Shown: positions 410 through 24,797 of the stretch, in pieces | How the letters are laid out: each line of letters begins with the position of its first letter | Numbering within the stretch: position 1 is the stretch's first letter | IMG/VR virus record: IMGVR_UViG_3300023184_000466 | Coordinates: 1-26,163 of that record | Length of the DNA stretch: 26,163 nt | Origin: a virus | Reading direction: 5' to 3' (one strand) | Notes under the pieces: generated by a model | Seen by the model: the letters and a program-made list of their open reading frames with translations, nothing else | Told to the model about the DNA's origin: nothing | The model's database searches: none | Program-made: the position numbers and the translations under genes

Positions 410-413
410 AAAA

Positions 414-3002: not shown

Positions 3003-3019
3003 AGAAAAAATTGTTTATT

Positions 3020-3028
3020 ATAAATATT
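3020..3028 (-). promoter_or_regulatory. AATATTTAT box upstream of the tape measure gene
   Basis: Coding-strand TTAATATTTATAATAA, 17 nt before the tape measure ATG. It directly follows the hairpin at 3030-3055, a terminator-then-promoter arrangement. Confidence 0.5.
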
Positions 3029-3055
3029 AAAAGGCATCATTTTTTAGATGCCTTT
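3026..3055 (-). terminator. Probable rho-independent terminator after the gp26-like gene pair
   Basis: On the minus strand a 9-bp stem AAAGGCATC/GATGCCTTT with an 8-nt loop TAAAAAAT is followed by TTAATATTT. It overlaps the last codons of the frame that stops at 3037. The T tract is short and interrupted, so termination may be partial. Confidence 0.5.
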
Positions 3056-7598: not shown

Positions 7599-8792
7599 TT
7601 AATAAATATTCAAAAGTTTATTAATTGACACGATTACTTGCTCAGGTTTTATAGTTTTTGTACATTCAAAATGTCTTGGTGTATTTTGATGTTCAGGACA
7701 CCATTCCCAATCACCAGGATTTAACCAATGTCTATTAAAACATCCAGAACAAGCATTTGAATCAGGAGTAAATATACGTTCACAATCTTCAAATTCAGTA
7801 TATGGTTCACTAAAGCCTGAAATTAATATTGTTTTTGTTCCCAAAGCCCAGGATAACCAACTCATTCCACTACCTACACCAATAAACATATCAGCGTGTT
7901 TAATATCATTCATTCTATCTTGTAATGGTAAATTACCTGTTTTATCAATAATACCTTCTAAAGTACCTCCTAATTTTGAATCATGCCACGGATCACCATG
8001 AGGTTCTTGAGTTAACATAACAACATGATAATTTTTACTAAGTAAATAGTCAATAATATCTTGCCATCCACCTGGGTAATTCCAATATTTAGCATGAGCG
8101 GAAGCATGAGGAGCAATCACAACATATTTTCCATTTATTTGTTTACCTTTATTTTCAAAATAAACTTTAGGTTTTACTTCATAATAATCTAATCCTAAAA
8201 TATCCGTTGCTGTTTGTTGTAAAGGTATTGTTTTGAATTCTTGTGGGTTTTTGCTTTTTACTCTTTCTTCATTATCATAAAACCACCCAATACAGTACAT
8301 AGCATATAAATTTTCTACAGGAGTACCAGGTTTAATAAATTCTATTTCTGGGTATTGAGATTCAAACCAATCGTTATGGAAAGTTGATACTACCATGTGG
8401 CAATTGTGTTTTTTTCTAAATTCTTCGATATGAGGAAACCATGCTAGAGTATCACCTAAAGCATTTGATTCTAAATGTACATAAACTTTTTTATTTTCAG
8501 CATTATATAAATGTTCAAATACTAACTTATTGTTACTGTAGACTTCAATTTTCCACTCAACAAAATAAGCAGTATTACACTTAGTCCACATATTATTACT
8601 AATATCAGCTTCATGGTAAATTTTACCTGTTTTATTATCTTTAAAAACAACATAATAATTAGCATCTTGTGGTCCTAATATTTCACAAGAAGCACAGTTT
8701 ACAAAATGAACATTAAAAGAATTAGAAGGTTCTTTAAAAGGTAAATTTAATTTTACTGTGTTGTTGTATTCTTTAATTAGTATATCTTTCAT
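7599..8792 (-). CDS. TibC/AAH-like autotransporter O-heptosyltransferase family glycosyltransferase (397 aa)
   Basis: GT9-related enzyme of the type that transfers heptose to Ser/Thr residues of autotransporter adhesins in the cytoplasm. Visible features in order: an N-terminal beta-rich domain (~1-100); the acceptor/catalytic segment HLESNALGDTLAWFPHIEEF with Asp114; KYVVIAPHASAHAKYWNYPG (~222-241); the donor-site motif GVGSGMSWLSWALGTKTILI followed by SGFSEPYTEF; and the iron-binding cysteines CSGC (348, 351), WEWC (365) and FEC (377), spaced as C-x2-C-x13-C-x11-C. This cysteine set marks the TibC-type family rather than LPS heptosyltransferases. It overlaps the upstream glycosyltransferase gene by 20 nt. 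The sugar donor cannot be read from sequence. The nearby giant Ser/Thr-rich fibre is a plausible substrate (inference). Confidence 0.88.
   Translation of the reverse strand: MKDILIKEYNNTVKLNLPFKEPSNSFNVHFVNCASCEILGPQDANYYVVFKDNKTGKIYHEADISNNMWTKCNTAYFVEWKIEVYSNNKLVFEHLYNAENKKVYVHLESNALGDTLAWFPHIEEFRKKHNCHMVVSTFHNDWFESQYPEIEFIKPGTPVENLYAMYCIGWFYDNEERVKSKNPQEFKTIPLQQTATDILGLDYYEVKPKVYFENKGKQINGKYVVIAPHASAHAKYWNYPGGWQDIIDYLLSKNYHVVMLTQEPHGDPWHDSKLGGTLEGIIDKTGNLPLQDRMNDIKHADMFIGVGSGMSWLSWALGTKTILISGFSEPYTEFEDCERIFTPDSNACSGCFNRHWLNPGDWEWCPEHQNTPRHFECTKTIKPEQVIVSINKLLNIY
7602..7610 (-). promoter_or_regulatory. AATATTTAT box upstream of the 282-aa gene
   Basis: Coding-strand GAATATTTATTAATAAAC, 8 nt before the ATG. 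It overlaps the last codons of the heptosyltransferase-like gene (stop at 7601-7599). Confidence 0.45.
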
Positions 8793-9720
8793 ATATTTGT
8801 ACTAGTTCTTTTGTTCTATTTAACCAAGATAAGGATTGAGCATGGGATAAAGCATTTTGTCTGTAAGCATCATATTTGTTTAGAATATCTTCCATACCAT
8901 TTACCATATCAGGTAAACTACGAGGAGCTCTCCACATTCCACCAAAAAATGTTTCTTCTTCTATCCAACCTAAAACAGGTAAACCACATGCTGCGGCCTC
9001 TAATATTGTTAAATTAGGGTGACCTGCTTCTAATTCACTTGGATGTAAAAATATAGTATGTGAAGTATAAAGTTGTCTTAATTGTTCATTAGGTAAATCA
9101 TAAATTACATTTAATTTAGGATAACCTTTTACCCAAGGATTAGCATCTATCCAATTTTCATTATTTTGGGGACCAGCAATAGTGATAGATAAATTGTAGG
9201 CCATAGCTAATTTAATACCCAATTCAAATCCTTTTCTATCATGAGTACCATAACCACCTAATCCATTATTAGCTAACATTAACAAACTATGTTTTATTGG
9301 TGGATTTAAATTTGGAAAAAATGTATCAATATCTACACCATGAGAAAAATATTCTACTTTATCACATTCAAAATAATCAACTAAATAACGAGCAGGTACT
9401 AAAGAACACAATGATTTTTCCATTGCTTCTTTATTTTTCCTATACACCTCAGAATCTTTTCCATAATAAAAAGCATGGTGGTCATGGTGCTGAAAAATAT
9501 ATGGTATTCCTCTTTCTGCTAGTTCTAAAGCTAAATTAGCAACGTGTACCATTACAACATCATAGTCACCTTTATTTACTTCGTTTGCCCATTTAATATC
9601 TACTTGATGTCCTAATTTTTTTAAATTACAAGTAAAATCCCATACTATTTTTTCAATAGCACCCCATGAAGGTGGTGGAATAGGAATACCGCAACCTGGA
9701 TTTATTTGGCAAATTTTCAT
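8773..9720 (-). CDS. GT4-like glycosyltransferase (315 aa)
   Basis: Probable retaining GT-B glycosyltransferase. The N-terminus has MKICQINPGCGIPIPPPSWG followed by AIEKIVWDFTCNLKKLGHQV, the usual 'PP..GG.E..v..L...L...GH.V' start of GT4 enzymes. The C-terminal half carries NNGLGGYGTHDRKGFELGIK (~152-171), TIAGPQ (~180), QLRQLYTSHTIFLHPSELEA (~214-233) and GHPNLTILEAAACGLPVLGW (~234-253), matching the donor-binding end of the family. The first Glu of the usual E-x7-E pair is not in the exact position (EAGHPNLTILE), a possible variation. Its start overlaps the upstream 663-residue gene by 4 nt (ATGA) and its end overlaps the next gene, so the three are translationally coupled. Donor and acceptor are unknown; it may extend a glycan started by the TibC-like enzyme. 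Confidence 0.85.
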   Translation of the reverse strand: MKICQINPGCGIPIPPPSWGAIEKIVWDFTCNLKKLGHQVDIKWANEVNKGDYDVVMVHVANLALELAERGIPYIFQHHDHHAFYYGKDSEVYRKNKEAMEKSLCSLVPARYLVDYFECDKVEYFSHGVDIDTFFPNLNPPIKHSLLMLANNGLGGYGTHDRKGFELGIKLAMAYNLSITIAGPQNNENWIDANPWVKGYPKLNVIYDLPNEQLRQLYTSHTIFLHPSELEAGHPNLTILEAAACGLPVLGWIEEETFFGGMWRAPRSLPDMVNGMEDILNKYDAYRQNALSHAQSLSWLNRTKELVQIYERYTN

Positions 9721-11708
9721 TTTAATTCTATATAACCGTTATCTGATAGGTTGTTATAAAAATAATCAGGAGTTAATATAATTTCTTTTGTTTCTATTAT
9801 ATTTTCTTTTAACGTATCTTCTCTATCATAAAAATTTGCTACTATATTACATGGTTTATTTTCAAAATCCATAATTTTAAACCATTTATTATTACCATTA
9901 ATATTGATAGTTTCTACTAGTATATCATCTACAAAAACATCCATTATTCTACTATCTGTAGAATTATTAACACTAAACCAAATAACAAACTTATTATAAG
10001 TCTTTTTTATTGGGAGTAGAGTAAAATATTCAACACGTGAAAAATCATAATGTATTAAATATTGATTTGCTAATTCTACAAAATCTTGATTTTTTTCATA
10101 ATAAACTCTATCAGAAATGAATTTTAAATTATGATAAACCATATTTTCTAATCCATTAGTTTCAGAACCCCAACGGTACATAGCATCAGTATAGTCTTGT
10201 TCTTTTAACATTGGAGGAAAATCGTTTATATATGATTTTGGATTAACTCCCATAAACCAAGTAGTAATAGTTGGACCTTCTTGATCACCTTCTCTTAAAT
10301 GAACATAATAATCTTTTTTATTTAATTTAGAAGATACATAATTTAAAAAATATTCATCATTAATCTCGTAATCATAATTTAAAAAGAAAGCTTTATTAAA
10401 TCCTAAACCTTGAGCTAAACAAGCTCCATTATAATAATTTGTATAACAAGCAGGACCATGATAAATGTCATTTCCATGAGCTTTTAAGTTTATATAAGCA
10501 TAAAAATCAGGATAATTGTAATAAGAATAGGAATAAAAAGTATGTTTAGTTAATAAATTATTATTATCAACAATTACATAATCTACTTTTTTTTCTAATT
10601 CTTTAGGAACTGGTATGTGTGATGTTAAAATAATTTTTCTTCCTGTTTTTTTAGCTGCTTTGATGTTTTGTAATGTTACATCAATAATTCTTTGTGTATT
10701 AGGATATGTAGAAATAATAATTACTTCTTTTTCTTTATTTATATATTCTTCTTTATTTAATAATTGTTGAATTATTTCACAATTTTGTTTAAAGTCATTA
10801 AATTCAAGATAATTAACTTTATCAAATTTATCAAAATAATTTAAATAAACTGGTAAATTATATATTAAAACAGGGATTTGATAAGAAATTGCTTCACGAA
10901 TAACTAAAGGCATTGTTTCTTTATCATTATTTGAACCTTTAGATGTGAATAAAAATAAATCCATTGCTTGGTAAAATCTATCTACATCTGTTCTTTCATC
11001 CCACCATGTTAAATTTGAAGGTGTATCTTTTTCTAATGGTTCCCAATACCATCTAAAATTATCTGCTCTATTACCTAAACTATGAAATTCATATTCAGGT
11101 AATGATTTAGCATATTCAAAAAATTCTGCTTGGTTTTTACGTGATGTATATAATCCAACGTGTAAAATATGTTTTTTATTGGGATCTAAACCTAGTGCTT
11201 TTAATGCTTCTTCTCTATTAGGACGTTCAACATATTCAATTGGATACTCAACTAATACTTTAGGAATGTTTATATCTTTATACTGATTAATTTGCCAATC
11301 AGATACAAACATAAATTTATCTGGAAAGAATTGTTTATTTTCTGTATTGTAAGATGAATCATGTGATGTTTCTACAATAGCATAACTTCTATCCTGTTTG
11401 TATATTTGTTTAGCTATATCTGAATCCATAAAAAATTCAGGTATTTCTTCTAAATGAATAATATCGGGTTGGATATTGTTAATAATTTCAATTAATTGTT
11501 GTTTATTATCGTCTAGTGTATAAAATCTTTCAGGAGCAACGAGTTGGGTTATTTTATTTTTAGTTACAACTAAACGACCACCTGTATGATCTACCCATTC
11601 AATAAGATAAATAATAAATTCATCTTTTAATAATTCTATTTTTTTACAAAGGTATTGAGGAAGTCCACCTGTTGACAGATGCGGGGCAACATATAACAAT
11701 TTTTTCAT
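9717..11708 (-). CDS. Multidomain glycosyltransferase: GT4-like N-terminus fused to a second domain (663 aa)
   Basis: Three parts are visible. Residues 1-~325 form a GT4/GT-B unit: MKKLLYVAPHLSTGGLPQYL at the start, IQPDIIHLEEIPEFFMDSD (~99-117), HILHVGLYTSRKNQAEFF (~180-197), and the E-x7-E donor motif in ETMPLVIREAISYQIPVLIY near 262-281. Residues ~330-580 (VIIISTYPNTQRIIDVTLQN, KAFFLNYDYEINDEYFLNYV, TWFMGVNPKSY) look like a GT-A/GT2-type domain with DYE in the DxD-like position. The last ~80 residues are a beta-rich module (KFVIWFSVNNSTDSRIMDVF). The assignment of the second and third domains is by pattern and less certain. It is the first gene of the glycosyltransferase operon and has a box before it. 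It could make two linkages of one glycan. Confidence 0.8.
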   Translation of the reverse strand: MKKLLYVAPHLSTGGLPQYLCKKIELLKDEFIIYLIEWVDHTGGRLVVTKNKITQLVAPERFYTLDDNKQQLIEIINNIQPDIIHLEEIPEFFMDSDIAKQIYKQDRSYAIVETSHDSSYNTENKQFFPDKFMFVSDWQINQYKDINIPKVLVEYPIEYVERPNREEALKALGLDPNKKHILHVGLYTSRKNQAEFFEYAKSLPEYEFHSLGNRADNFRWYWEPLEKDTPSNLTWWDERTDVDRFYQAMDLFLFTSKGSNNDKETMPLVIREAISYQIPVLIYNLPVYLNYFDKFDKVNYLEFNDFKQNCEIIQQLLNKEEYINKEKEVIIISTYPNTQRIIDVTLQNIKAAKKTGRKIILTSHIPVPKELEKKVDYVIVDNNNLLTKHTFYSYSYYNYPDFYAYINLKAHGNDIYHGPACYTNYYNGACLAQGLGFNKAFFLNYDYEINDEYFLNYVSSKLNKKDYYVHLREGDQEGPTITTWFMGVNPKSYINDFPPMLKEQDYTDAMYRWGSETNGLENMVYHNLKFISDRVYYEKNQDFVELANQYLIHYDFSRVEYFTLLPIKKTYNKFVIWFSVNNSTDSRIMDVFVDDILVETININGNNKWFKIMDFENKPCNIVANFYDREDTLKENIIETKEIILTPDYFYNNLSDNGYIELK

Positions 11709-11721
11709 AACGATGTTGACA

Positions 11722-11730
11722 ATAAATATA
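11722..11730 (-). promoter_or_regulatory. ATATTTAT box upstream of the glycosyltransferase operon
   Basis: Coding-strand TATATTTATTG, 13 nt before the ATG of the 663-aa gene. It is the only box for the three overlapping glycosyltransferase genes, which suggests one transcript. Confidence 0.45.
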
Positions 11731-11750
11731 ATAAAAAGTACTTAAAGTAC
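11731..11750 (-). terminator. Weak hairpin with T tract after the 90-aa gene
   Basis: On the minus strand GTACT-TTA-AGTAC is followed by TTTTTAT. The stem is only 5 bp, so this is a weak or partial terminator candidate. It lies immediately before the box of the glycosyltransferase operon. Confidence 0.35.
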
Positions 11751-11757
11751 CAAGTTA

Positions 11758-12030
11758 TTATAAAGAACCTGTTGGGTATCCTGTAATTGTTAGTCCTTTA
11801 TCAGCCGCTATAGATTGAATGATTACTTTATCATCTGTTCCCCATGTTGCTAAAACTTCAGGGGGTACTTCATAATCCTCACTAAATAAAAGAGAACCAC
11901 TTACTCCTAAAAGATTATATCTAGCAGTACAATATGTTGATTGTAAATCATATCTTAAAATATAAGCATTTAAATAAACTGCTTGTTTATTTATTACTGG
12001 TACTGGTGAAATTGATGCTACTAATGCCAT
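11758..12030 (-). CDS. Small probable virion protein (90 aa)
   Basis: Unrecognised. It starts MALVASISPVPVINKQAVYL and continues with alternating strands (AYILRYDLQSTYCTARYNLL, SGSLLFSEDYEVPPEVLATW) then GTDDKVIIQSIAADKGLTIT. The 'EDYEVPPEVLATWGTDDKVI' part resembles small proteins commonly found among tail-fibre genes of environmental T4-like phages, where the function is unknown. A box lies only 5 nt from the ATG, closer than for any other gene here, so a transcript from it would be nearly leaderless. It is probably a small beta-rich structural subunit or fibre accessory; that is inference from context. Confidence 0.65.
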   Translation of the reverse strand: MALVASISPVPVINKQAVYLNAYILRYDLQSTYCTARYNLLGVSGSLLFSEDYEVPPEVLATWGTDDKVIIQSIAADKGLTITGYPTGSL

Positions 12031-12035
12031 ATGTT

Positions 12036-12044
12036 ATAAATATA
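12036..12044 (-). promoter_or_regulatory. ATATTTAT box upstream of the 90-aa gene
   Basis: Coding-strand TTAATATATTTATAACATATG; only 5 nt separate the box from the ATG. This short spacing is hard to reconcile with a simple -10 element unless the mRNA is leaderless. Confidence 0.4.
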
Positions 12045-12052
12045 TTAAAAAA

Positions 12053-12742
12053 TTAAGTTACATATACATCATAAACAATTCCTGAGCCGTTTGTATATCC
12101 TTGAGAAGCACCTCCTGAAGTCCATGTAAAACTACCTCCACCTCCACCAGCATTATATACAGTAGTACCATTAACTGAAAAAGCAATATTTGCAATACCA
12201 TTACCTGGGTTTGTATTAATTTGGATAGACCAATAAACATTGGATACTAAAGGAAAACTATTAGCAGAAAAACCAGGCATTTGAGTTGCTCCTGCTGAAG
12301 TTCCTCCAGGAGCATTAACATTAAAACTATTATGAACTCTATAAACACCATTATAATCATAACAATCTATTTGAACATTTATGTCATTATTTTGTCCTGG
12401 TGGGGGGAAAAATGTATTGTTTTTTGTATTATTATAAGAATATTTTATATCATAAGTAGTTCCATCAAAATAGTAATATTTGTTAGTATAATTACCTAAA
12501 TTTATAAAATCTACGCCACGTACAAGAGGAGCACCTGTATTGTATATAGCGTTTCCACCTGCAGGTACTCCTCCTCCACTACCATCTCCCCCAAATCCAT
12601 TAGAAGTATAAGTATTAGATCCTAAAGGACCTTGAGCCCAAGATTCATAAGCAATCCTTCCAAAACTTTCCGCCGCTGAAAATCCTGGTGTTGATTCTTG
12701 AAATAAATCATCTATACTTATTGGTCCTCCTGGAGTTGGCAT
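12053..12742 (-). CDS. Glycine/asparagine-rich probable fibre or virion accessory protein (229 aa)
   Basis: Starts MPTPGGPISIDDLFQES, a pattern I associate with phage structural proteins carrying a short N-terminal peptide (P-G-P-I-S-(I/M)-xDL). A Gly-rich linker follows (NGFGGDGSGGGVPAGGN, ~48-64). The C-terminal half has alternating beta strands rich in Asn, Tyr and Gly (NINVQIDCYDYNGVYRVHNS-like region, then SNVYWSIQINTNPGNGIANI and IAFSVNGTTVYNAGGGGG). The ATG is one base after the TAA of the giant gene (TAATATG), so it is translationally coupled to the giant fibre. That linkage suggests an adaptor, tip or assembly partner of the fibre. The function is not known. Confidence 0.7.
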   Translation of the reverse strand: MPTPGGPISIDDLFQESTPGFSAAESFGRIAYESWAQGPLGSNTYTSNGFGGDGSGGGVPAGGNAIYNTGAPLVRGVDFINLGNYTNKYYYFDGTTYDIKYSYNNTKNNTFFPPPGQNNDINVQIDCYDYNGVYRVHNSFNVNAPGGTSAGATQMPGFSANSFPLVSNVYWSIQINTNPGNGIANIAFSVNGTTVYNAGGGGGSFTWTSGGASQGYTNGSGIVYDVYVT

Positions 12743-12743
12743 A

Positions 12744-15700
12744 TTATTTATCTTTAAGTTGTTGTTCTAAACTTTCTACTTTAGCTGTTAATTCTTTAAT
12801 AGCTTCAATCAATAGAGCGTTTAAGTTACCATATGCTACTGCTAATGTTCCATCATCTACTCTTGTTGTAACTACTTCAGGTAATACTTTTTGTACTTCT
12901 TGAGCAATTACACCGGCGTATCTTTGTGTATCTTCTCTATCTGTTCTTATAAACGTTACACCTCTAATTTCTTTAATTTTTTCTATAGCGTTTTCAATTA
13001 CTTGAACATCTCCTTTTACTTTAGCATCTGAAAATGCTACAATATCGTTTGAAGCATATATTGATATTCCACTAACGTTTCCGTTTACATCTAATGGATA
13101 ACTAGGAGCTGTAGTTTGAATACCTACATAACCTGCTGTAGTTATTGCCATTACTGTACCAAAACTAGCGTTATAGAAGAAGAAATCAGATGCTAAAGCA
13201 CCTACTGCACTACCTCCTACACCTACGTTCCATGTGTTAGTTACACCTTGAGCATTATAAATAATTTGAGCGTATCCTGAAGTAGAATCGTTTTCTAATG
13301 TTAATGGACTTTCAGTAGAAGAGTTATTTAAAATGTGTACTTTAGAATTTGGAGATGTTGTTCCAATACCAAATCTACTATTTGTAATATCAGCGTATAA
13401 GAACGATACACTTTGTACTGTTGAAGCACCTACTGATCTTACTAAATAATCGGGTTGGTTTACAAATGTACCACCACTAATACCTGCTGTACCGCTAAAT
13501 GATATACCACTTGTTCCAGCAGCACCACTTGTACCATTAGTACCGTTAATACCACTTGTACCATTAGCACCATTTATACCATTAGTACCAGAAGCACCTG
13601 TTGTACCATTTGTTGCATTAATTCCTGAAGTACCTGCTATACCATTTCTTCCTGAAGTTCCATCAGCACCATTTGTACCTGAAGTAGCATTACTTATTCC
13701 AGAAGTTCCTGATGTGCCATTTCTTCCTGAAGTACCATCTGCTCCGTTTGTTCCTGAAGTAGCATTACTTATTCCAGAAGTTCCTGATGTGCCATTTCTT
13801 CCTGAAGTACCATTAGCGCCGTTAGTACCACTAGTACCACCTCCTATTGAAATACCGCTTGTACCTGAAGTACCGTTTATACCACTTGTTCCACTAGCGC
13901 CATTTACACCTGAAGTACCACCTCCTATTGAAATACCGCTTGTACCTGAAGTACCGTTTATACCTGAAGTACCACTAGCACCTGTTGTACCTGAAGTTGT
14001 AAGACTATTTCCAGATGTACCTGATGTACCACTTATACCTGATGTTTGGTTTGCACCTGAAGTACCAGCTGTTACGTTTGAGTTACCACTTGTACCACTA
14101 GTACCGCTTATACCTGATGTTTGGTTTGCACCTGAAGTACCAGCTGTTACGTTTGAGTTACCACTTGTACCACTAGTACCGCTTATACCTGATGTTTGTG
14201 ATGTGCCTGAAGTACCTGCTGTAACATTACTATTTCCAGAAGTACCACTTGTACCGCTTATACCTGATGTTTGTGATGTGCCTGAAGTACCTGCAGTTAC
14301 GTTTGAGTTACCACTTGTACCTGAAGTACCAGTTGTGCCTGATGTATTTGAAATACCACTAGTTCCAGCATTTCCACTATTACCTGAAGTACCATTTGTA
14401 CCTGTAGTTCCTGAAGTATTGCTTATTCCAGAAATACCAGCAGCACCACTTAAACCTGAAGTACCTGATGTTCCACTAGTTCCTGATGAACCACTAGTTC
14501 CTGAAGTATTAGAAGCACCTGATTGACCGGCTGTACCTGAAACTCCTGTAGTACCACTTGAACCTGAAGTTCCTGAAGTGTTTGAAGCACCTGATTGACC
14601 AGCAGTACCTGAAGCACCTGTTGTACCTGAAGTACCATTTGTACCTGATGTGTTTGAAACACCACTAACTCCTGCTGTTCCATTAGCTCCTGTTGTACCA
14701 GAAGTACCTTGTGAACCGCTTGTACCACTTGTACTAGAAGCACCTGATTGGCCTGCTGTACCTGAAGCTCCTGTAGTACCTGAAGAACCTGAAGTTCCTG
14801 AAGTATTAGAAGCTCCACTGTTACCACCAGTTCCATTAGCACCTGTTGTTCCTGAAGTACCATTAGTACCTGAGGTGTTAGATAATCCTGATTGACCTGC
14901 TGTACCTGAAGCGCCTGTTGTACCAGAAGTTCCTGTTGTGCCTGAAGAACCTGAAGTTCCAGAGGTGTTAGAAACACCACTAACTCCTGCTGTTCCATTA
15001 GCCCCTGTTGTACCTGAAGAACCTGAAGTTCCTGAAGTGTTTGAAGATCCACTATTACCACCTGTTCCATTGGCACCTGTTGTACCAGAAGTACCATTTG
15101 TACCAGATGTATTAGAAATTCCACTAACTCCTGCTGTACCTGAAGCACCTGTTGTACCTGAAGTACCTTGTGAACCACTTGTTCCTGAAGTAGAACTTAA
15201 TCCACTAGTACCTGCAGTACCTGATCTTCCCGCAGTACCATCTGTACCACTTGAACCAGAAGTACCAGAAGTACCACTTGTATCATTATTTCCTGAAGTA
15301 CCAGCTATACCTCTTGTTCCTGAAGTACCAGTAGTACCACTAGAACCTGATGTTCCTGATGTGTTTGAAGCTCCTGATTGACCTGCTGTTCCAGTAGCTC
15401 CTGTAGTACCGGAAGAACCTGAAGTTCCTGAAGTATTAGAAGCACCTGATTGACCTGCAGTACCATTAGCACCTGTTGTACCTGAAGTACCATTTGTACC
15501 TGATGTATTAGATATACCTGATTGTCCTGCAGTTCCAGCGGCTCCTGTTGTTCCAGAAGTACCTTGTGAACCACTTGTTCCCGAAGTATTAGATAAACCA
15601 CTTGTACCTGCTGTACCAGATCTACCTGCTGTACCATCAGTACCACTTGTTCCTGAAGATCCTGAGGTACCTGATGTATTTGAATCACCGCTAGTTCCAG

Positions 15701-18700
15701 CTATACCTCTTGTACCTGAAGTACCAGTTGTACCACTTGAACCTGAGGTTCCTGAGGTATTTGATGAGTTTGACTGTCCTGCAGTTCCTGAAGTACCTGT
15801 AGTACCTGAAGAACCACTTGTTCCACTTGTATTAGAAGCTCCTGAAGTTCCAGCGGCTCCTGTTGTTCCAGAAGTACCTGATGAACCTGAAGTTCCTGAT
15901 GAACCACTAGCTGCAGAAGCACCTGAAACGCCTCCAATACCTGCTGAACCTCCTGAACCACTTGTTCCACTTGTTCCGCTTGTATTTGAGATTCCTGAAG
16001 TACCAGCTGCACCTGCAGTACCTGCTGTTCCTGTAGTTCCTGATGAACCACTTGTACCAGAAGTGTTTGAATTATTTGATTGTCCTGCAGTTCCTGAAGT
16101 ACCAGTTGTACCTGATGAACCTGAAGTTCCAGAAGTATTTGAAATTCCTGATGTACCAGCAATACCTGTTGTTCCTGAAGTACCAGTTGTACCACTTGAA
16201 CCTGAGGTTCCTGAGGTATTAGATAATCCTGAAGTACCAGCTGTACCATTTCTACCTGAAGTACCGTCTGTTCCGTTTGAACCTGAAGTTCCACTTAAAC
16301 CTGAAGTTCCAAATGTTCCATTTTTTCCAGAAGTACCATCTGTTCCATTAGAACCTGAAGTACCACTTATACCTGAAGTTCCTGCTGTACCTGATCTACC
16401 TGAAGTACCTGCGGTACCAGCTGAACCTGAAGTATCATTTATTCCTGAAGTACCTGCTGTACCTTTAGTTCCTGAAGAACCACTTGTACCAGAAGTACCA
16501 CTTACATCACTTATACCAGAAGTACCTGCTGTACCTTTAGTTCCTGAAGAACCAGAAGTACCACTTGTTCCTGAAGTATCGCTATTACCTGAAGTACCTG
16601 CTAAACCTTTAGTACCACTTGTTCCTGAAGAACCACTAGTACCACTAGTTCCTGATGTATCACTGTTACCTGATGTACCAGCGTTACCACGAGTTCCTGA
16701 ACTACCTGATGTACCACTTGTACCACTTGTATTTGAAGCACCGCTTGTTCCAGCAGCACCTGTTGTACCTGAAGTACCTTGTGAACCGCTTGTACCTGAA
16801 GTACTGCTTAATCCGCTTGTTCCTGCTGTAGAAGAAGCACCACTTGTACCTGCTGTACCAGTTGAACCTGATGTATTAGATAAACCAGAAGTTCCAGCAG
16901 TACCATTTATACCTGAAGTTCCTGAAGAACCACTTGTGCCTGAAGTATTGCTTAATCCTGATGTACCGGCAACTCCATTAGTTCCTGAAGTACCTGTTGT
17001 ACCTGAAGAACCACTTGTACCTGAAGTATTGCTTAATCCGCTTGTACCTGCTACTCCATTAGTTCCTGAAGTACCAGTAGTACCACTTGAACCAGATGTT
17101 CCTGAAGTATTTGAATTACCAGAAGTACCAGCAGTTCCGCTTCTACCTGCAGTTCCATCTGTACCTGATGAACCACTAGTTCCTGAAGTACCTGATGTAA
17201 ATGAGTCACCTGATGTGCCTGCTAATCCTCTTGTTCCTGAAGAACCAGATGAACCTGAAGTGCCTGAAGTATTTGATAAACCACTTGTACCAGCAACTCC
17301 ATTAGTTCCTGAAGTACCTGTTGTACCACTTGAACCTGAAGTACCAGATGTGTTTGATAAACCGCTTGTACCTGCTGTACTTGAAGCTCCGCTTGTACCT
17401 GCTGTACCAGTTGAACCTGAAGTTCCTGAAGAACCCGAAGTACCAGATGTATTTGAAATACCTGATGTACCTGCGGCTCCTGTAGTACCAGCAGTACCTG
17501 TAGTACCACTCGAACCTGAAGAACCAGATGTTCCTGAAGTGTTGCTTAATCCGCTTGTACCTGCTACTCCATTAGTACCAGAAGTACCTGTTGTACCTGA
17601 ACTACCTGAAGTGCCAGATGTATTTGATAAACCACTAGTTCCAGCAACACCTGTTGTACCTGAAGTACCATTAGTTCCTGATGAACCTGATGAACCGCTA
17701 GTTCCAGAAGTATTTGAAATTCCAGAAGTACCAGCTGTACCATTTCTTCCTGAAGTACCATCTGTTCCTGAAGAACCAGATGTATTTGATAAACCAGAAG
17801 TACCTGATGTACTACTTCTTCCTGAAGTACCATCTGTACCACTAGAACCTGATGTACCACTAGTACCTGATGTAAATGAATCACCTGAAGTACCTGCTAA
17901 ACCACGAGTACCACTTGAACCTGTAGTACCACTTGTACCTGAAGTATTTGATGCACCTGAAGTACCAGCAACTCCTGTTGTACCAGATGAACCTGAAGTA
18001 CCACTTGTACCACTTGTATTACTTACTCCTGATGTACCTGCAGTGTTTGAAAATCCTGAAGTACCTGCGGTACCAGTAGAACCTGATGTACCTGCTGAAC
18101 CACTTGTTCCTGAAGTATTACTTAAACCGCTTGTTCCTGCAGTATTTGATGCACCTGAAGTACCTGCAGTACCTGTAGTTCCTGAAGAACCAGATGAACC
18201 TGAAGTACCTGATGTATTTGATACTCCTGAAGTACCAGCAGTACCATTTATGCCTGAAGTACCATGAGTACCACTAGAACCTGAAGTACCAGAAGTACCA
18301 CTTGTATTACTATCTCCTGATGTACCTGCTAATCCACGAGTTCCTGAAGAACCAGTTGTACCTGAAGTTCCAGATGTGTTACTTGAACCTGAAGTACCAG
18401 CAGCTCCTGTAGTACCAGCAGTACCTGCAGAACCACTTGTGCCTGAAGTTGCACTAATACCTGAAGTACCAGCAACTCCATTTATTCCTGAAGTACCATT
18501 AGTTCCTGAAGAGCCACTTGTACCTGCTGTACCACTTGTGTTACTTAAACCTGAAGTACCAGCGGTTGAACTTGCACCGCTTGTACCTGCTGTACCTGTT
18601 GAACCTGAAGTTCCTGATGAACCTGAAGTTCCAGATGTGTTTGATATACCTGAAGTACCTGCGGTAGCATTTACACCACTTGTACCTGATGTACCAGTAG

Positions 18701-21700
18701 TACCAGATGAACCTGAAGAACCACTTGTACCACTAGTATTACTTATACCACTTGTTCCAGCTGTACTTGAAGCACCTGATGTACCGTGAGTACCACTTGA
18801 ACCTGATGAACCTGAAGTTCCTGAAGTATTTGAGTCGCCACTAGTTCCAGCTAAACCACGAGTTCCTGAAGTACCTGTAGTACCACTAGAACCTGATGTA
18901 CCTGATGTGTTTGATATTCCTGAAGTTCCAGCAGCACCTGTTGTACCAAAAGTACCTGCTGAACCTGAAGTTCCTGATGTATTACTTAAACCACTTGTAC
19001 CAGCTGTTGAACTAGCACCTGAGGTTCCTGAAGTACCAGTTGTACCTGACGAACCTGAGCTACCTGAGGTACCAGAAGTATTTGAAGATCCTGAAGTACC
19101 AGCAGCACCTGTTGTACCAGATGAACCTGAAGTACCACTTGTACCAGAAACATTACTAACACCTGAAGTACCAGCAGCACCTGTTGTACCAGAAGTACCT
19201 GCTGAGCCACTTGTTCCAGATGTATTACTTAAACCACTTGTACCAGCAGTTGAATTAGCACCTGAAGTACCTGCAGTTCCTGTAGTTCCTGAAGAACCAC
19301 TTGAACCACTTGTACCTGATGTATTTGAAACACCTGATGTACCAGCATTACCATTTGTACCAGAAGTACCTGTAGTTCCTGATGAACCCGATGTACCTGA
19401 TGTGTTAGATACGCCACTAGTACCGCCTATACCATTAGTTCCTGATAAACCTGATGTTCCTGATGAACCACTAGTTCCGCTTGTACTAGACACACCACTT
19501 GTACCTGCAGTACCGCTTCTTCCAGCAGTACCATCTGTACCACTTGAACCAGAAGTACCAGAAGTACCACTTGTATCATTATTTCCTGAAGTACCAGCTA
19601 TACCTTTAGTTCCAGAAGAACCACTTGTACCACTAGTACCACTTGTATCACTATTACCACTTGTACCAGCATTTCCTCTTGTTCCTGAAGAACCAGATGA
19701 ACCTGATGTACCAGACGTAGCACTAATACCTGAAGTACCTGCTACACCATTTATACCTGCAGTACCATTTGAACCTGAAGTACCTGAAGTTGAGCTAATA
19801 CCTGAAGTACCAGCAACTCCGTTTATTCCTGAAGTTCCGTTTGAACCTGAAGTACCAGAAGTAGCACTTATACCACTTGTACCTGCTAAACCATTTATAC
19901 CTGCAGTACCGTTTGAACCTGAAGTACCGGAGGTTGCACTAATACCTGAAGTACCAGCTATTCCATTAACACCATTAGTACCATTAGAACCTGAAGTACC
20001 AGAAGTAGCACTTATACCACTTGTACCTGCAACTCCATTAATACCATTAGTTCCGTTTGTACCTGATGTACCACTTGAACCACTAGTTCCACTAGTAGCA
20101 CTTATTCCACTAGTACCAGCAGTACCATTAATTCCTGAAGTACCACTTATACCATTTGTACCTGAAGTACCTGTAGTTCCTGAAGAACCTGAAGTACCAG
20201 ATGTATTTGAATTTCCAGAAGTACCTGCTGTACCAGATCTACCTGCAGTGCCATCAGTACCACTTGAACCTGAAGTTCCTGAAGTACCACTTGTATCACT
20301 ATTGCCACTTGTACCCGCGTTTCCTCTTGTTCCTGAAGAACCAGATGAACCTGAAGTGCCTGATGTATTTGAAGAACCACTTGTTCCAGCGGCTCCTGTA
20401 GTACCTGCTGTACCTGTAGTTCCTGCTGAACCACTAGTACCAGAAGTACCTGAAGTATTACTAATTCCAGAAGTACCAGCGTTACCATTAGTTCCTGAAG
20501 TACCAGTTGTACCTGATGAACCTGAAGTACCGCTTGTACCTGATGTATTTGAATTTCCTGATGTACCAGCAACTCCTGTTGTACCAGCAGTTCCATTTGA
20601 ACCACTTGTACCTGAAGTATTACTAATTCCTGATGTACCTGCTGTACCTGTAGCACCTGAAGATCCATTTGATCCACTAGTACCACTAGTAGAACTTATT
20701 CCACTAGTACCTGCAGTGCCTGATCTACCTGAGGTACCATCTGTACCACTAGAACCTGAAGTACCACTAGTACCTGATGTAAATGAATCACCAGATGTAC
20801 CTGCATTACCACGAGTTCCAGAAGAACCAGTTGTACCACTTGTACCTGAAGTATTTGAAGATCCTGAAGTACCAGCAGCACCTGTTGTACCAGAAGTACC
20901 TTGAGAACCGCTTGTACCTGATGTATTACTTGATCCTGAAGTACCAGCAGCACCTGATGTTCCTGAAGAACCTGTTGAACCTGAAGTACCTGATGTATTT
21001 GAAATGCCTGAAGTACCTGCTATACCATTCGTACCTGAAGTACCTGTAGTTCCTGAAGATCCACTTGTGCCTGCTGTACCTGAAGTATTTGAAATTCCTG
21101 AAGTACCAGCTATACCATTAATACCACTAGTTCCATTTGAACCACTAGTACCACTTGTATTGCTAATACCACTTGTTCCTGCTACTCCTGAAGTACCTGA
21201 ATTACCATTTGTTCCTGAAGAACCTGAAGTATTTGATAAACCTGAAGTACCGGCGGCTCCTGTTGTACCTGAAGTACCTGTTGTACCACTTGAACCTGAA
21301 GTGCCTGAAGTATTTGAAGCTCCTGAAGTACCAGCAGCACCTGTTGTACCTGAAGTACCAGTTGAACCACTTGTACCACTTGTACTTGACAAACCAGAAG
21401 TACCAGCCGTTCCACTTCTACCTGAAGTACCATCTGTACCTGAAGTTCCTGATGAACCTGAAGTACCAGATGTAAAGGAATCACCTGAAGTACCAGCAAT
21501 TCCTTTTGTACCACTTGAACCTGAAGATCCAGAAGTACCAGAAGTAGCAGAAATACCTGCAGTACCTGTTAAACCACTAGTTCCAGCACTACCTGAAGTA
21601 CCTGAGGTGTTAGAAATACCACTTGTACCTGCTGTATTTGAAGTTCCACTTGTACCTGCAGTACCTGTTGTACCTGCTGAACCACTTGTTCCTGAAGTAT

Positions 21701-24700
21701 TTGATACTCCTGAAGTACCATTTGTTCCATTTATTCCTGATGTACCATTTGTTCCGCTTGAACCAGAAGCGCCTGAAACACCATTAAATCCACTTAATCC
21801 TGAAGTACCACTTGTACCTGTTGTACCTGAAATACCACTTGTACCAGAAGTGTTTGAAATACCACTTGTACCAGCACTACCATTTGTACCGAAAGAACCA
21901 GACGTACCTGATGTACCTGAAGTATTTGAAGCTCCTGAAGTACCAGCAGCACCTGTTGTACCTGAAGAACCATTTGAACCACTTGTACCACTTGTACTGC
22001 TTATACCTGAAGTACCTGCTGTACTTGATCTACCTGCAGTACCATCTGTACCAGCAGTACCTGATGAACCGCTTGTACCTGATGTAAATGAGTCGCCTGA
22101 GGTACCTGCTATACCTTTAGTTCCTGAAGTACCACTTGTACCCGAAGAACCAGACGTACCTGATGTATCACTATTACCGGAAGTACCTGCTATACCACGA
22201 GTACCATTAGAACCTGAAGTACCAGAAGAACCTGAGGTACCGCTTGTATTTGAAATACCTGAAGTACCTGCTACTCCATTTATTCCTGAAGTACCAGCAG
22301 TACCTGTAGTTCCTGAAGAACCTGATGTACCAGCGGTACCTGATGTATTACTTAAACCTGATGTACCAGCATTACCTGTTGTACCTGAAGTACCTGTTGT
22401 ACCTGCTGAACCGGAAGTACCAGATGTACCAGAAGTATTTGATAAACCTGAAGTACCTGCGGCACCTGTAGTACCTGAAGAGCCATTTGAACCACTTGTA
22501 CCTGAAGTGTTTGATATACCACTTGTACCTGCAGTACCTGTTGCACCAGAAGAACCATTTGAACCACTAGTTCCACTAGTAGCACTTAATCCTGAGGTAC
22601 CTGCTGTACCAGATCTACCTGCAGTACCGTCTGTACCACTTGTTCCTGATGAACCTGAAGTACCACTTGTATTACTATCACCTGATGTACCTGCTAATCC
22701 ACGAGTTCCTGAAGAACCAGTAGTTCCAGAAGTACCTGAAGTATTTGAAGCACCTGAAGTACCTGCTGCTCCTGTTGTACCTGAAGATCCATTTGAACCA
22801 CTAGTACCAGAAGTATTTGATATGCCACTTGTACCTGCTGTTGAGCTAGCACCTGATGTACCTGCAGTACCTGTAGTTCCTGAAGAACCATTTGTACCAC
22901 TTGTACCTGAAGTAGATGAAATACCACTTGTACCTGCTGTGCCTGATCTACCAGAAGAACCATCTGTACCTGAGGTACCAGATGTGTTACTTAATCCAGA
23001 GGTACCTGCTGTACTACTTCTACCAGCAGTACCGTCCGTACCAGAAGTACCACTTGAACCACTTGTACCTGAAGTATTAGAATCACCACTAGTTCCAGCT
23101 AAACCACGAGTACCGCTTGAACCTGAAGTTCCACTTGAACCTGAAGTATTAGATAAGCCACTAGTACCTGCTACTCCATTTGAACCAGAAGTACCTGTTG
23201 AACCCGAAGTACCACTTGTTGCTGAAATACCTGAAGTACCAGCTGCTCCTGTTGTACCTGAACTACCATTTATACCAGAAGTACCTGATGTATTATTAGC
23301 ACCGCTTGTTCCAGCAGCACCTGTTGTACCAGAAGTACCTGTAGTTCCGCTTGAACCTGAAGTACCACTTGTATTGCTTAATCCTGAAGTACCAGCTGTT
23401 GAGCTAGCACCTGATGTTCCAGCAGTACCTGTAGTTCCTGATGAACCACTTGTACCACTCGTATTTGATAAACCACTAGTTCCTGCTGTACCTGTATTTC
23501 CAGATGTACCTGCTGAACCACTTGTTCCAGAAGTGTTACTTAAACCACTTGTACCAGCAGTAGAATTTATACCACTTGTACCAGCAGAACCTGAAGTACC
23601 ACTTGTATTAGATATTCCTGAGGTACCTGCTAATCCATTAACACCACTAGTACCTGATGTACCAGTTGTACCACTTGAACCAGATGTACCAGAAGTATTA
23701 CTTGCACCAGATGTTCCTGCTACACCTGTAGAACCTGAACTACCTGATGTTCCAGAAGTACCAGATGTACTTGATATGCCTGAAGTACCTGCTGTTGAAC
23801 TAGCACCTGAACTACCAGCAGTACCTGTTGTACCACTTGTATTTGAAATACCAGATGTACCAGAAGTTGAATTAGCACCACTAGTACCGGAAGTACCAGA
23901 AGTTGAAGAAATACCTGAAGTACCTGAGATACCACTTGTACCTGAAGATCCAGTAGTACCACTTGTATTTGATACTCCTGAAGTTCCTGCTACTCCATTA
24001 ATACCAGAAGATCCATTAGATCCTGATGTACCTGAAGTGTTAGAAATACCTGATGTACCTGCATTTCCATTTATACCTGATGAACCATTAGATCCTGATG
24101 TACCTGAGGTTCCTGAAGTACCATTTGTAGCACTAATACCAGAAGTACCATTAGTACCATTTGTACCTGATACACCACTAGTTCCGCTTGAACCGGATGT
24201 ACCTGAAGATCCTGATGTACCTGAAGTGTTAGAAATACCTGATGTACCTGCTACTCCATTTATTCCTGAAGAACCTGATGTACCGTTTGTTCCTGAAGTA
24301 GAAGAAATACCACTAGTTCCTGCTATACCAGATGTACCTGAACTTCCATTAGTACCAGATGTACCACTAGTTCCAGAAATACCTGCTGTACCATTTGTAC
24401 CTGCTACACCACTTGTACCAGAAGTAGAATTTACATATCCAAAAAGACCTGAAACAGGGTTATATGTAACAACATAAGGACCAGATTGAACTGGTAGAGT
24501 TTGTATTATAAGAGGTTGAGAAGACCCAGAAATAACTAAAGATCCAGTGATAACGGCTGAACCTGAAAATGGGAATCCTACTCCTCCTGAACCAGAAATA
24601 TAAACAGTTACACCAGTGTTGCTTCCACTAACACCAAATCCTGTTATTACTTCTGAACCACTAAAATTTATAAAGGGAACACTAGCACTAACTAATATTC

Positions 24701-24797
24701 CATTTTGATATATATCAATAGTCCCACCCCCACCATTTCCTCCATTAGGATTATATACACCAACCGGTACCTGATCTAAAAATCTTACTTGCGCCAT
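12744..24797 (-). CDS. Giant Gly-Thr-Ser collagen-like fibre with a C-terminal S74 chaperone domain (4017 aa)
   Basis: Residues 1-~123 are a globular N-terminus (MAQVRFLDQVPVGVYNPNGG; SAVITGSLVISGSSQPLI) probably for attachment to the particle. Residues ~124-3775 are Gly-X-Y triplets dominated by Gly-Thr-Ser, Gly-Ser-Ser, Gly-Thr-Ala and Gly-Thr-Thr, without proline or cysteine that I can find. Residues ~3777-3915 contain FVNQPDYLVRSVG, RFGIGTTSPNSKVHILNN and GYVGIQTTAPSYPLDVNGN, as in phage fibre head domains. Residues ~3922-4017 are a Peptidase_S74 domain: FSDAKVKGD with Ser3923 and Lys3928 as the expected dyad, RYAGVIAQEVQKVLPEVV, and a terminal coiled coil. S74 domains drive trimer folding and then cut themselves off. 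The family role supports a trimeric fibre; a triple helix is inference. A box lies 21 nt upstream of the ATG. Confidence 0.93.
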   Translation of the reverse strand: MAQVRFLDQVPVGVYNPNGGNGGGGTIDIYQNGILVSASVPFINFSGSEVITGFGVSGSNTGVTVYISGSGGVGFPFSGSAVITGSLVISGSSQPLIIQTLPVQSGPYVVTYNPVSGLFGYVNSTSGTSGVAGTNGTAGISGTSGTSGTNGSSGTSGIAGTSGISSTSGTNGTSGSSGINGVAGTSGISNTSGTSGSSGTSGSSGTSGVSGTNGTNGTSGISATNGTSGTSGTSGSNGSSGINGNAGTSGISNTSGTSGSNGSSGINGVAGTSGVSNTSGTTGSSGTSGISGTSGISSTSGTSGTSGANSTSGTSGISNTSGTTGTAGSSGASSTAGTSGISSTSGTSGTSGSSGSTGVAGTSGASNTSGTSGSSGTTGTSGTSGVNGLAGTSGISNTSGTSGSAGTSGINSTAGTSGLSNTSGTSGSAGTSGNTGTAGTSGLSNTSGTSGSSGTTGTAGTSGASSTAGTSGLSNTSGTSGSSGTTGTSGTTGAAGTSGANNTSGTSGINGSSGTTGAAGTSGISATSGTSGSTGTSGSNGVAGTSGLSNTSGSSGTSGSSGTRGLAGTSGDSNTSGTSGSSGTSGTDGTAGRSSTAGTSGLSNTSGTSGTDGSSGRSGTAGTSGISSTSGTSGTNGSSGTTGTAGTSGASSTAGTSGISNTSGTSGSNGSSGTTGAAGTSGASNTSGTSGTTGSSGTRGLAGTSGDSNTSGTSGSSGTSGTDGTAGRSGTAGTSGLSATSGTSGSNGSSGATGTAGTSGISNTSGTSGSNGSSGTTGAAGTSGLSNTSGTSGTSGSAGTTGTSGTTGNAGTSGLSNTSGTAGTSGSSGTTGTAGTSGINGVAGTSGISNTSGTSGSSGTSGSNGTRGIAGTSGNSDTSGTSGSSGTSGTSGTKGIAGTSGDSFTSGTSGSSGTAGTDGTAGRSSTAGTSGISSTSGTSGSNGSSGTTGAAGTSGASNTSGTSGTSGSFGTNGSAGTSGISNTSGTSGISGTTGTSGTSGLSGFNGVSGASGSSGTNGTSGINGTNGTSGVSNTSGTSGSAGTTGTAGTSGTSNTAGTSGISNTSGTSGSAGTSGLTGTAGISATSGTSGSSGSSGTKGIAGTSGDSFTSGTSGSSGTSGTDGTSGRSGTAGTSGLSSTSGTSGSTGTSGTTGAAGTSGASNTSGTSGSSGTTGTSGTTGAAGTSGLSNTSGSSGTNGNSGTSGVAGTSGISNTSGTSGSNGTSGINGIAGTSGISNTSGTAGTSGSSGTTGTSGTNGIAGTSGISNTSGTSGSTGSSGTSGAAGTSGSSNTSGTSGSQGTSGTTGAAGTSGSSNTSGTSGTTGSSGTRGNAGTSGDSFTSGTSGTSGSSGTDGTSGRSGTAGTSGISSTSGTSGSNGSSGATGTAGTSGISNTSGTSGSNGTAGTTGVAGTSGNSNTSGTSGTSGSSGTTGTSGTNGNAGTSGISNTSGTSGTSGSAGTTGTAGTTGAAGTSGSSNTSGTSGSSGSSGTRGNAGTSGNSDTSGTSGTSGSSGTDGTAGRSGTAGTSGNSNTSGTSGSSGTTGTSGTNGISGTSGINGTAGTSGISATSGTSGSSGTSGTNGTNGINGVAGTSGISATSGTSGSNGTNGVNGIAGTSGISATSGTSGSNGTAGINGLAGTSGISATSGTSGSNGTSGINGVAGTSGISSTSGTSGSNGTAGINGVAGTSGISATSGTSGSSGSSGTRGNAGTSGNSDTSGTSGTSGSSGTKGIAGTSGNNDTSGTSGTSGSSGTDGTAGRSGTAGTSGVSSTSGTSGSSGTSGLSGTNGIGGTSGVSNTSGTSGSSGTTGTSGTNGNAGTSGVSNTSGTSGSSGSSGTTGTAGTSGANSTAGTSGLSNTSGTSGSAGTSGTTGAAGTSGVSNVSGTSGTSGSSGTTGAAGTSGSSNTSGTSGSSGSSGTTGTSGTSGASSTAGTSGLSNTSGTSGSAGTFGTTGAAGTSGISNTSGTSGSSGTTGTSGTRGLAGTSGDSNTSGTSGSSGSSGTHGTSGASSTAGTSGISNTSGTSGSSGSSGTTGTSGTSGVNATAGTSGISNTSGTSGSSGTSGSTGTAGTSGASSTAGTSGLSNTSGTAGTSGSSGTNGTSGINGVAGTSGISATSGTSGSAGTAGTTGAAGTSGSSNTSGTSGTTGSSGTRGLAGTSGDSNTSGTSGTSGSSGTHGTSGINGTAGTSGVSNTSGTSGSSGSSGTTGTAGTSGASNTAGTSGLSNTSGTSGSAGTSGSTGTAGTSGFSNTAGTSGVSNTSGTSGTSGSSGTTGVAGTSGASNTSGTSGTTGSSGTRGLAGTSGDSFTSGTSGTSGSSGTDGTSGRSSTSGTSGLSNTSGSSGTDGTSGRNGTAGTSGISNTSGTSGSSGSSGTNGTSGTTGVAGTSGLSNTSGTSGSSGTTGTSGTNGVAGTSGLSNTSGTSGSSGSSGTTGTAGTTGAAGTSGISNTSGTSGSSGTSGSTGTAGTSGASSTAGTSGLSNTSGTSGSSGTTGTSGTNGVAGTSGLSNTSGTSGSSGSSGTRGLAGTSGDSFTSGTSGTSGSSGTDGTAGRSGTAGTSGNSNTSGTSGSSGTTGTSGTNGVAGTSGLSNTSGTSGSSGTTGTSGTNGVAGTSGLSNTSGTSGSSGTSGINGTAGTSGLSNTSGSTGTAGTSGASSTAGTSGLSSTSGTSGSQGTSGTTGAAGTSGASNTSGTSGTSGSSGTRGNAGTSGNSDTSGTSGTSGSSGTSGTKGLAGTSGNSDTSGTSGTSGSSGTKGTAGTSGISDVSGTSGTSGSSGTKGTAGTSGINDTSGSAGTAGTSGRSGTAGTSGISGTSGSNGTDGTSGKNGTFGTSGLSGTSGSNGTDGTSGRNGTAGTSGLSNTSGTSGSSGTTGTSGTTGIAGTSGISNTSGTSGSSGTTGTSGTAGQSNNSNTSGTSGSSGTTGTAGTAGAAGTSGISNTSGTSGTSGSGGSAGIGGVSGASAASGSSGTSGSSGTSGTTGAAGTSGASNTSGTSGSSGTTGTSGTAGQSNSSNTSGTSGSSGTTGTSGTRGIAGTSGDSNTSGTSGSSGTSGTDGTAGRSGTAGTSGLSNTSGTSGSQGTSGTTGAAGTAGQSGISNTSGTNGTSGTTGANGTAGQSGASNTSGTSGSSGTTGATGTAGQSGASNTSGTSGSSGTTGTSGTRGIAGTSGNNDTSGTSGTSGSSGTDGTAGRSGTAGTSGLSSTSGTSGSQGTSGTTGASGTAGVSGISNTSGTNGTSGTTGANGTGGNSGSSNTSGTSGSSGTTGANGTAGVSGVSNTSGTSGSSGTTGTSGTTGASGTAGQSGLSNTSGTNGTSGTTGANGTGGNSGASNTSGTSGSSGTTGASGTAGQSGASSTSGTSGSQGTSGTTGANGTAGVSGVSNTSGTNGTSGTTGASGTAGQSGASNTSGTSGSSGTTGVSGTAGQSGASNTSGTSGSSGTSGTSGTSGLSGAAGISGISNTSGTTGTNGTSGNSGNAGTSGISNTSGTTGTSGTSGNSNVTAGTSGTSQTSGISGTSGTSGNSNVTAGTSGTSQTSGISGTSGTSGNSNVTAGTSGANQTSGISGTSGTSGNSNVTAGTSGANQTSGISGTSGTSGNSLTTSGTTGASGTSGINGTSGTSGISIGGGTSGVNGASGTSGINGTSGTSGISIGGGTSGTNGANGTSGRNGTSGTSGISNATSGTNGADGTSGRNGTSGTSGISNATSGTNGADGTSGRNGIAGTSGINATNGTTGASGTNGINGANGTSGINGTNGTSGAAGTSGISFSGTAGISGGTFVNQPDYLVRSVGASTVQSVSFLYADITNSRFGIGTTSPNSKVHILNNSSTESPLTLENDSTSGYAQIIYNAQGVTNTWNVGVGGSAVGALASDFFFYNASFGTVMAITTAGYVGIQTTAPSYPLDVNGNVSGISIYASNDIVAFSDAKVKGDVQVIENAIEKIKEIRGVTFIRTDREDTQRYAGVIAQEVQKVLPEVVTTRVDDGTLAVAYGNLNALLIEAIKELTAKVESLEQQLKDK
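12747..13031 (-). other. S74 intramolecular chaperone / self-cleaving domain
   Basis: The last ~95 codons of the giant gene, beginning at the predicted catalytic serine (codon 13031-13029, TCA). The Ser-Asp-x3-Lys spacing fits the Ser-Lys dyad described for endosialidase-type chaperone domains. The AGVIAQEVQKVLPEV motif and the C-terminal helix (IEAIKELTAKVESLEQQLK) are diagnostic. Cleavage would release a fragment of about 10 kDa. Confidence 0.85.
13681..13830 (-). repeat. Two near-identical 75-nt tandem copies
   Basis: Copies begin at 13681 and 13756. Each encodes a 25-residue unit containing GTSGRNGTSGTSGISNATSG and are identical over most of their length before diverging at the distal end. 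The unit length is divisible by 3 in bases but not in residues per triplet, so each copy shifts the Gly-X-Y register by one. Confidence 0.85.
13840..13967 (-). repeat. 81-nt-spaced repeat with a GGG break in the triplet pattern
   Basis: The segment CCTCCTATTGAAATACCGCT (plus strand) occurs at 13840 and 13921. It encodes GTSGISIGGGTSG, where the triplet pattern is locally broken by three glycines. The spacing is 27 residues. Confidence 0.75.
14041..14340 (-). repeat. Four 75-nt tandem repeats
   Basis: Copies begin at 14041, 14116, 14191 and 14266. The two copies nearest the 3' end of the gene (14041 and 14116) match base for base; the other two are variants. Each encodes a 25-residue unit with GNSNVTAGTSG and QTSGISGTSGTS. 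The near identity suggests recent duplication. Confidence 0.9.

What the first reader, a model, noticed from the sequence alone, without database searches (positions are those of the whole stretch)
7599..24797. Candidate phage-encoded fibre glycosylation system
The giant Ser/Thr-rich fibre is followed in the same tail module by three overlapping glycosyltransferase genes, one of the TibC/AAH type that modifies Ser/Thr of adhesins directly. The fibre has no proline; in Riftia cuticle collagen, glycosylated Thr is known to stabilise proline-poor triple helices. So the GTs may both stabilise and coat the fibre, changing host binding or masking it. Neither the substrate nor the sugar is shown by the sequence.
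Basis: inference. Interest (0 to 1): 0.9.

Follow-up and report, generated by a model that had tools for sequence, protein, structure and literature searches.

The report
Phage enzymes that sugar-coat collagen fibres
This virus of bacteria carries a huge proline-free, collagen-like tail fibre together with an enzyme of a family known to attach sugars to serines of surface proteins, and the same pairing recurs in many different viruses and in some bacteria, so the virus most likely sugar-coats its own fibre, something not yet shown for such viruses.

Summary
A 4,017-aa fibre (12744-24797, minus) has a 3,644-residue Gly-X-Y body with no proline, mainly Thr at X and Ser at Y, ending in an S74 chaperone. 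Two small genes later come three overlapping glycosyltransferase (GT) genes. The last (7599-8792) passes NCBIfam's TibC/AAH protein O-heptosyltransferase model (326.7 bits, cut-off 200), folds onto TibC (Foldseek E 8e-38) and keeps the catalytic Asp, the donor-site Lys, Arg and Trp, and the four iron cysteines.

TibC-like genes occur in 31 of 74 contigs sampled for proline-free Ser/Thr collagen (14 of 17 of at least 100 kb) and in 0 of 64 sampled for Pro-collagen. The family tree splits into an autotransporter-type branch (Gly-Ser/Thr tract nearby in 0 of 62 bacterial loci) and a branch holding all the phage genes, where most bacterial members also sit beside a Gly-Ser/Thr tract gene. TibC-like enzymes are often fused to their neighbour GTs.

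Not shown: that sugar is attached, which sugar, or its effect. TibC modifies Ser, not Thr, so the Thr/Riftia analogy should become Ser at Y. Three large Ser/Thr-collagen contigs lack the gene.

The parts
12744..24797 (-). giant collagen-like tail fibre, 4017 aa, proposed substrate
   Evidence: Pfam Collagen in 53 stretches and Peptidase_S74; translation
13488..24419 (-). proline-free Gly-X-Y body (aa 127-3770): Thr at X, Ser at Y, recurrent NTS interruptions
12870..13031 (-). C-terminal Peptidase_S74 intramolecular chaperone domain (aa 3923-3976), Ser-Asp motif at its start
   Evidence: 44.5 bits, cut-off 22
12053..12742 (-). 229-aa Gly-rich protein between fibre and GTs, function unknown
   Evidence: no PHROG or NCBIfam hit; one Pfam hit below its cut-off
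11758..12030 (-). 90-aa protein, function unknown
   Evidence: no family hit
9717..11708 (-). two-domain GT: GT4 domain plus a second GT-A-fold-like domain
   Evidence: Pfam PF00534 44.1 bits; AlphaFold model and Foldseek
8773..9720 (-). small GT4-like glycosyltransferase
   Evidence: Pfam GT4-type families over cut-off; homologues fused to TibC in other phages
7599..8792 (-). TibC/AAH-like protein O-glycosyltransferase, proposed first enzyme
   Evidence: TIGR04414 326.7 bits, cut-off 200; 4rap E 4e-58; fold
7662..7751 (-). iron-finger region, C348, C351, C365, C377
   Evidence: align with TibC C339, C342, C358, C370
4667..6433 (-). tail sheath, shows the tail-module context and was used to sample relatives
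   Evidence: phrog_23 251 bits

Best explanation
The phage encodes its own fibre-glycosylation cassette. Most likely the TibC-like enzyme, in the host cytoplasm, transfers a sugar (heptose from the host's ADP-heptose is the best guess) onto serines at the Y position of the newly made Gly-X-Y fibre chain, before or while three chains fold. The small GT4 enzyme and the two-domain GT then probably extend the glycan or act on other sites. The S74 domain would help the chains trimerise. The virion would carry a long, heavily sugar-coated collagen rod. Shown here: the genes; the enzyme's family, fold and active-site residues; the repeat composition; the recurrent pairing with Ser-rich Gly-X-Y proteins in phages and bacteria; TibC-GT fusions. 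Inferred: that the fibre is the substrate, the sugar, the order of the GTs, and any effect on stability or host binding.
For: TIGR04414 326.7 bits, cut-off 200; TibC 4rap E 4e-58; model pLDDT 91 whose 21 best PDB hits are all TibC chains; D110, K230 and W305 kept in 137 of 137 and iron cysteines in 136 of 137 viral homologues. Co-occurrence: Ser/Thr-collagen contigs 31/74 versus Pro-collagen contigs 0/64, Fisher 1e-10, each size class p 0.011 or less; whole-record table 16/2/1/13, p 5e-6. Only 4 of 50,697 phage records match the protein by tblastn, and three of these also carry Ser/Thr collagen. Family tree splits at SH-aLRT 100 into an autotransporter-type and a Gly-Ser/Thr-linked branch; among bacterial loci a tract lies within 10 kb in 15/18 versus 0/62, or within 3 kb in 12/15 after leaving out three loci judged phage-derived (L442 added by eye). 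Ser exceeds Thr at Y in 31/31 window-lineage and 115/115 Ser/Thr-collagens but in 9/84 Pro-collagens, matching TibC's Ser specificity (PMC4358343). TibC is fused to homologues of the neighbour GTs in many phages.
Against: No biochemistry. Three of 17 Ser/Thr-collagen contigs of at least 100 kb lack TibC, and TibC-negative contigs mostly lack the two-domain GT too. LR756504 (636 kb) has TibC but no collagen hit. Some fused-TibC relatives sit near Pro-rich collagen (L152, L153). The sheath-tree independent-pairs test is underpowered (p 0.5-1), and proximity within diverse contigs is only p 0.053. The Pro-collagen controls come from other virus lineages. Among 50 records no HldE-type match passed its cut-off and GmhA was found only in LR756504.
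Confidence: 0.75

Rival explanations
1. The GTs modify host surface glycans (LPS core or O-chain) to block superinfection or re-adsorption, and sit in the tail module because host-recognition genes cluster there.
For: This is the usual reading of phage GTs in host-recognition clusters (PMC7029224). The two other GTs are GT4-type, a family with many LPS and exopolysaccharide enzymes, and GT9 includes the LPS heptosyltransferases.
Against: The TibC-like enzyme is far nearer to TibC than to LPS enzymes (326.7 versus at most 37.2 bits) and has the iron-finger cysteines. It tracks Ser/Thr collagen and not Pro collagen, and bacterial relatives pair with Gly-Ser/Thr tract proteins outside phage modules.
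Confidence: 0.12
2. The cassette glycosylates another phage protein (for example the 229-aa Gly-rich neighbour, the sheath or a capsid protein) and the Ser/Thr collagen is only a frequent neighbour.
For: Mycobacteriophage capsid and tail-tube subunits are glycosylated (Freeman et al. 2023, cited in PMC12619734); LR756504 has TibC without a collagen hit.
Against: The partner that recurs across phages and bacteria is the Ser-rich Gly-X-Y tract.
Confidence: 0.1
3. The association is lineage hitch-hiking: large aquatic phages of one host group happen to carry both genes, with no functional link.
For: Within the sheath lineage the tree-aware test is underpowered and controls are not lineage-matched.
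Against: The pairing recurs in LR756501, Mel-JY01 and widely divergent contigs, and in bacterial chromosomes of several families; the 0/62 contrast in autotransporter-type loci.
Confidence: 0.08

Closest known systems
TibC/AAH with TibA/AIDA-I (bacterial autotransporter heptosyltransferases, BAHT; TIGR04414, PDB 4rap)
   Same: fold, catalytic Asp, donor-site Lys/Arg/Trp, iron-finger cysteines, gene close to a Ser-rich repetitive protein
   Different: partner is a Gly-X-Y collagen fibre in a phage tail module, not a beta-helical autotransporter; separate, well-supported branch of the tree; Pro300 replaced by Gly; two further GT genes
Mimivirus collagen glycosylation (collagen-modifying enzymes of Acanthamoeba polyphaga mimivirus, PMC9546862)
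   Same: a virus that encodes both collagens and enzymes that glycosylate collagen
   Different: acts on hydroxylysine with unrelated enzymes, in a eukaryotic virus; here Ser is the predicted acceptor and there is almost no Lys
BclA of Bacillus spores and other bacterial collagen-like glycoproteins (PMC8968730)
   Same: bacterial-type Gly-X-Y protein that is O-glycosylated
   Different: known bacterial collagens favour Pro at X and Thr at Y; here Thr at X, Ser at Y, no Pro; TibC-type enzyme not reported for them in that review
Mycobacteriophage virion glycosylation (Freeman et al. 2023, cited in PMC12619734)
   Same: phage virion proteins carrying glycans, linked to phage GTs
   Different: capsid and tail-tube C-termini, not collagen fibres; different phages

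Membership tests
TibC/AAH (BAHT) family | score over the curated TIGR04414 cut-off | tested here: met
   326.7 bits, cut-off 200
TibC/AAH (BAHT) family | TibC fold with N-terminal beta-barrel and GT-B catalytic domain | tested here: met
   model pLDDT 91, TM-score 0.82 to 4rap
TibC/AAH (BAHT) family | catalytic Asp110 and donor residues Lys230, Arg286, Trp305 (Thr226 or Ser) | tested here: met
   D114, K235, R293, W312, S231 in the window protein
TibC/AAH (BAHT) family | four iron-finger cysteines | tested here: met
   C348, C351, C365, C377
TibC/AAH (BAHT) family | partner gene is an autotransporter | tested here: not met
   partner is a collagen fibre; sister branch of the tree. Filed as a sister branch, not as an autotransporter heptosyltransferase
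TibC/AAH (BAHT) family | dodecamer; ADP-heptose as donor; transfer to Ser | not testable with these tools
   needs purified protein and mass spectrometry
collagen-like proteins (PF01391) | long Gly-X-Y repeat | tested here: met
   53 Pfam stretches; 996 of 1214 triplets
collagen-like proteins (PF01391) | Pro enriched at X and Pro or Thr at Y, as in known animal and bacterial collagens | tested here: not met
   0 Pro in the body; Thr at X, Ser at Y. So collagen-like by repeat, atypical by composition
collagen-like proteins (PF01391) | forms a triple helix | not testable with these tools
   needs circular dichroism or a structure
S74-chaperone phage fibres | C-terminal Peptidase_S74 domain | tested here: met
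   44.5 bits, cut-off 22; Ser-Asp motif at its start
LPS heptosyltransferases (WaaC/WaaF/WaaQ, GT9) | over the curated cut-offs of the LPS models | tested here: not met
   at most 37.2 bits, cut-offs 170-467

The most novel reading that the evidence does not exclude
A separate branch of the TibC/AAH family is a general collagen O-glycosylation system shared by large phages and some bacteria: it puts a sugar on Ser at the Y position of proline-free Gly-X-Y chains, taking over the stabilising role that hydroxyproline plays in animal collagen.
Probability: 0.35. Interest if true: 0.9.

Novelty: new variant of a known kind. Interest (0 to 1): 0.78.

Why it matters
Phage glycosyltransferases are usually read as modifiers of the host surface or of DNA. 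Here one group gains a specific predicted substrate, the phage's own collagen fibre, with a testable site (Ser at Y). It could explain how huge proline-free collagens are stable, would add a virion sugar coat that may affect host binding, and would extend the TibC family from autotransporters to collagens in phages and bacteria. Searches of the held library found no paper that joins phages with O-heptosyltransferases or with heptosylated collagen; preprints and most subscription papers were not held.

Tried and rejected
A weak Erwinia jumbo-phage DNA match to the repeat lies antisense to a Val/Pro-rich protein and is not collagen. HldE-type hits (TIGR02199) were all below cut-off, so no phage heptose pathway is claimed. 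The 'cytidylyltransferase like protein' of Mel-JY01 has no NCBIfam hit and is not shown to be HldE. The sheath-tree pair test was underpowered. GT25-like domains in relatives of the two-domain GT are below cut-off and absent from the window. Foldseek for the two-domain GT gives only generic GT folds, and its N-terminal half is poorly modelled.

Full report
The window is a 26-kb linear viral fragment with a myovirus tail module on the minus strand: a 313-aa protein, the giant fibre, two small genes, three GT genes, two more small genes, sheath, a tube-like protein, baseplate hub and tape measure. The nearest cultured sheath is that of Flavobacterium phage immuto, which lacks both TibC and collagen.

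The fibre is 4017 aa. Its body (aa 127-3770) has Gly at 996 of 1214 triplet starts, Thr at 56% of X and Ser at 63% of Y, no Pro and no Tyr; where Gly is missing it is mostly Asn in NTS (85 triplets), and interruptions commonly lie 8-10 triplets apart. It ends in an S74 domain. Known bacterial collagens favour Pro at X and Thr at Y (PMC8968730), so this composition is distinct.

The TibC-like enzyme (7599-8792) is well over the cut-off of TIGR04414, matches TibC by sequence and fold, and keeps the catalytic and donor-site residues and iron cysteines that the TibC paper shows to be needed (PMC4358343). The position that sets stereoselectivity (Pro300 in TibC, Ser in AAH) is Gly here; most viral homologues have Gly and some Ser, so the exact sugar is open. 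In that paper Ser and not Thr was modified.

Three comparisons test the substrate. First, contigs sampled by a Gly-Ser/Thr repeat pattern have TibC in 31 of 74 cases, rising to 14 of 17 at 100 kb or more, against 0 of 64 sampled by a Gly-Pro pattern. Second, in 32 records reached through TibC, sheath or phage hits, presence of TibC and of Pfam collagen agree in 29; the one TibC-negative record with collagen (L144) has a Pro-containing one. Third, the tree of 118 enzymes splits with SH-aLRT 100 into a branch of autotransporter-type bacterial genes and a branch with all the phage genes and 16 genes from bacterial assemblies. In the second branch, Methylococcaceae, Oxalobacteraceae and other proteobacteria have the gene about 0.1-1.5 kb from a protein with GTS or GSS tracts; several of these have a signal peptide or lipoprotein-type start by eye. 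Among bacterial loci of this branch, 12 of 15 not judged phage-derived have a tract within 3 kb (one, L442, added by eye; L447, a Rickettsiaceae MAG contig, may be phage too), against 0 of 62 in the other branch. One locus scored as lacking a tract (L443) has instead an exported-looking poly-Ser protein next to TibC.

Ser exceeds Thr at Y in all 31 window-lineage and all 115 sampled Ser/Thr-collagens, but in only 9 of 84 Pro-collagens, where Y is often Thr. This fits an enzyme that modifies Ser.

Fusions of TibC with homologues of the neighbour GTs in other phages, and the constant three-gene cassette (30 of 30), point to joint action. The two-domain GT has a GT4 domain and a GT-A-fold-like domain.

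Limits. No chemistry was done. That the fibre is the enzyme's substrate is therefore a strong inference; the sugar and the physical effect are weaker ones.

Noticed in passing
L440, L441, L442, L444, L446 (Methylobacter, Methylomicrobium and other Methylococcaceae) and L448-L450, L452, L453, L455: Bacterial loci with a TibC-like gene next to a gene with GTS/GSS tracts, several with a signal peptide or lipoprotein-type start: candidate bacterial O-glycosylation pairs.
   Followed up: partly
L081 (Microcystis phage Mel-JY01, PP395634.1) 2-3049: A Ser/Thr collagen open frame at the record start is overlain by antisense CDS annotation; TibC is fused to other domains in a 1226-aa protein annotated as FkbM methyltransferase.
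   Followed up: partly
LR756504.1 (L083, L437): A 636-kb phage record with TibC and, 27 kb away, a GmhA over cut-off, but no Pfam collagen hit: possible own heptose supply and an unknown substrate.
   Followed up: no
L018, L023, L037, L086 (relatives of the two-domain GT): C-terminal extension weakly matching GT25, the family that includes animal collagen galactosyltransferase; below the Pfam cut-off.
   Followed up: partly
window 13488-24419: Recurrent Gly-to-Asn interruptions (NTS) and 161 N-X-S/T sequences in the collagen body; role unknown.
   Followed up: no
L438 and L454: Contigs binned in bacterial MAGs (L438 labelled Winogradskyella) carry the phage sheath and a Ser/Thr collagen as well as TibC, so look like phage sequence; L438 hints at a Flavobacteriia host for the window's lineage.
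   Followed up: partly
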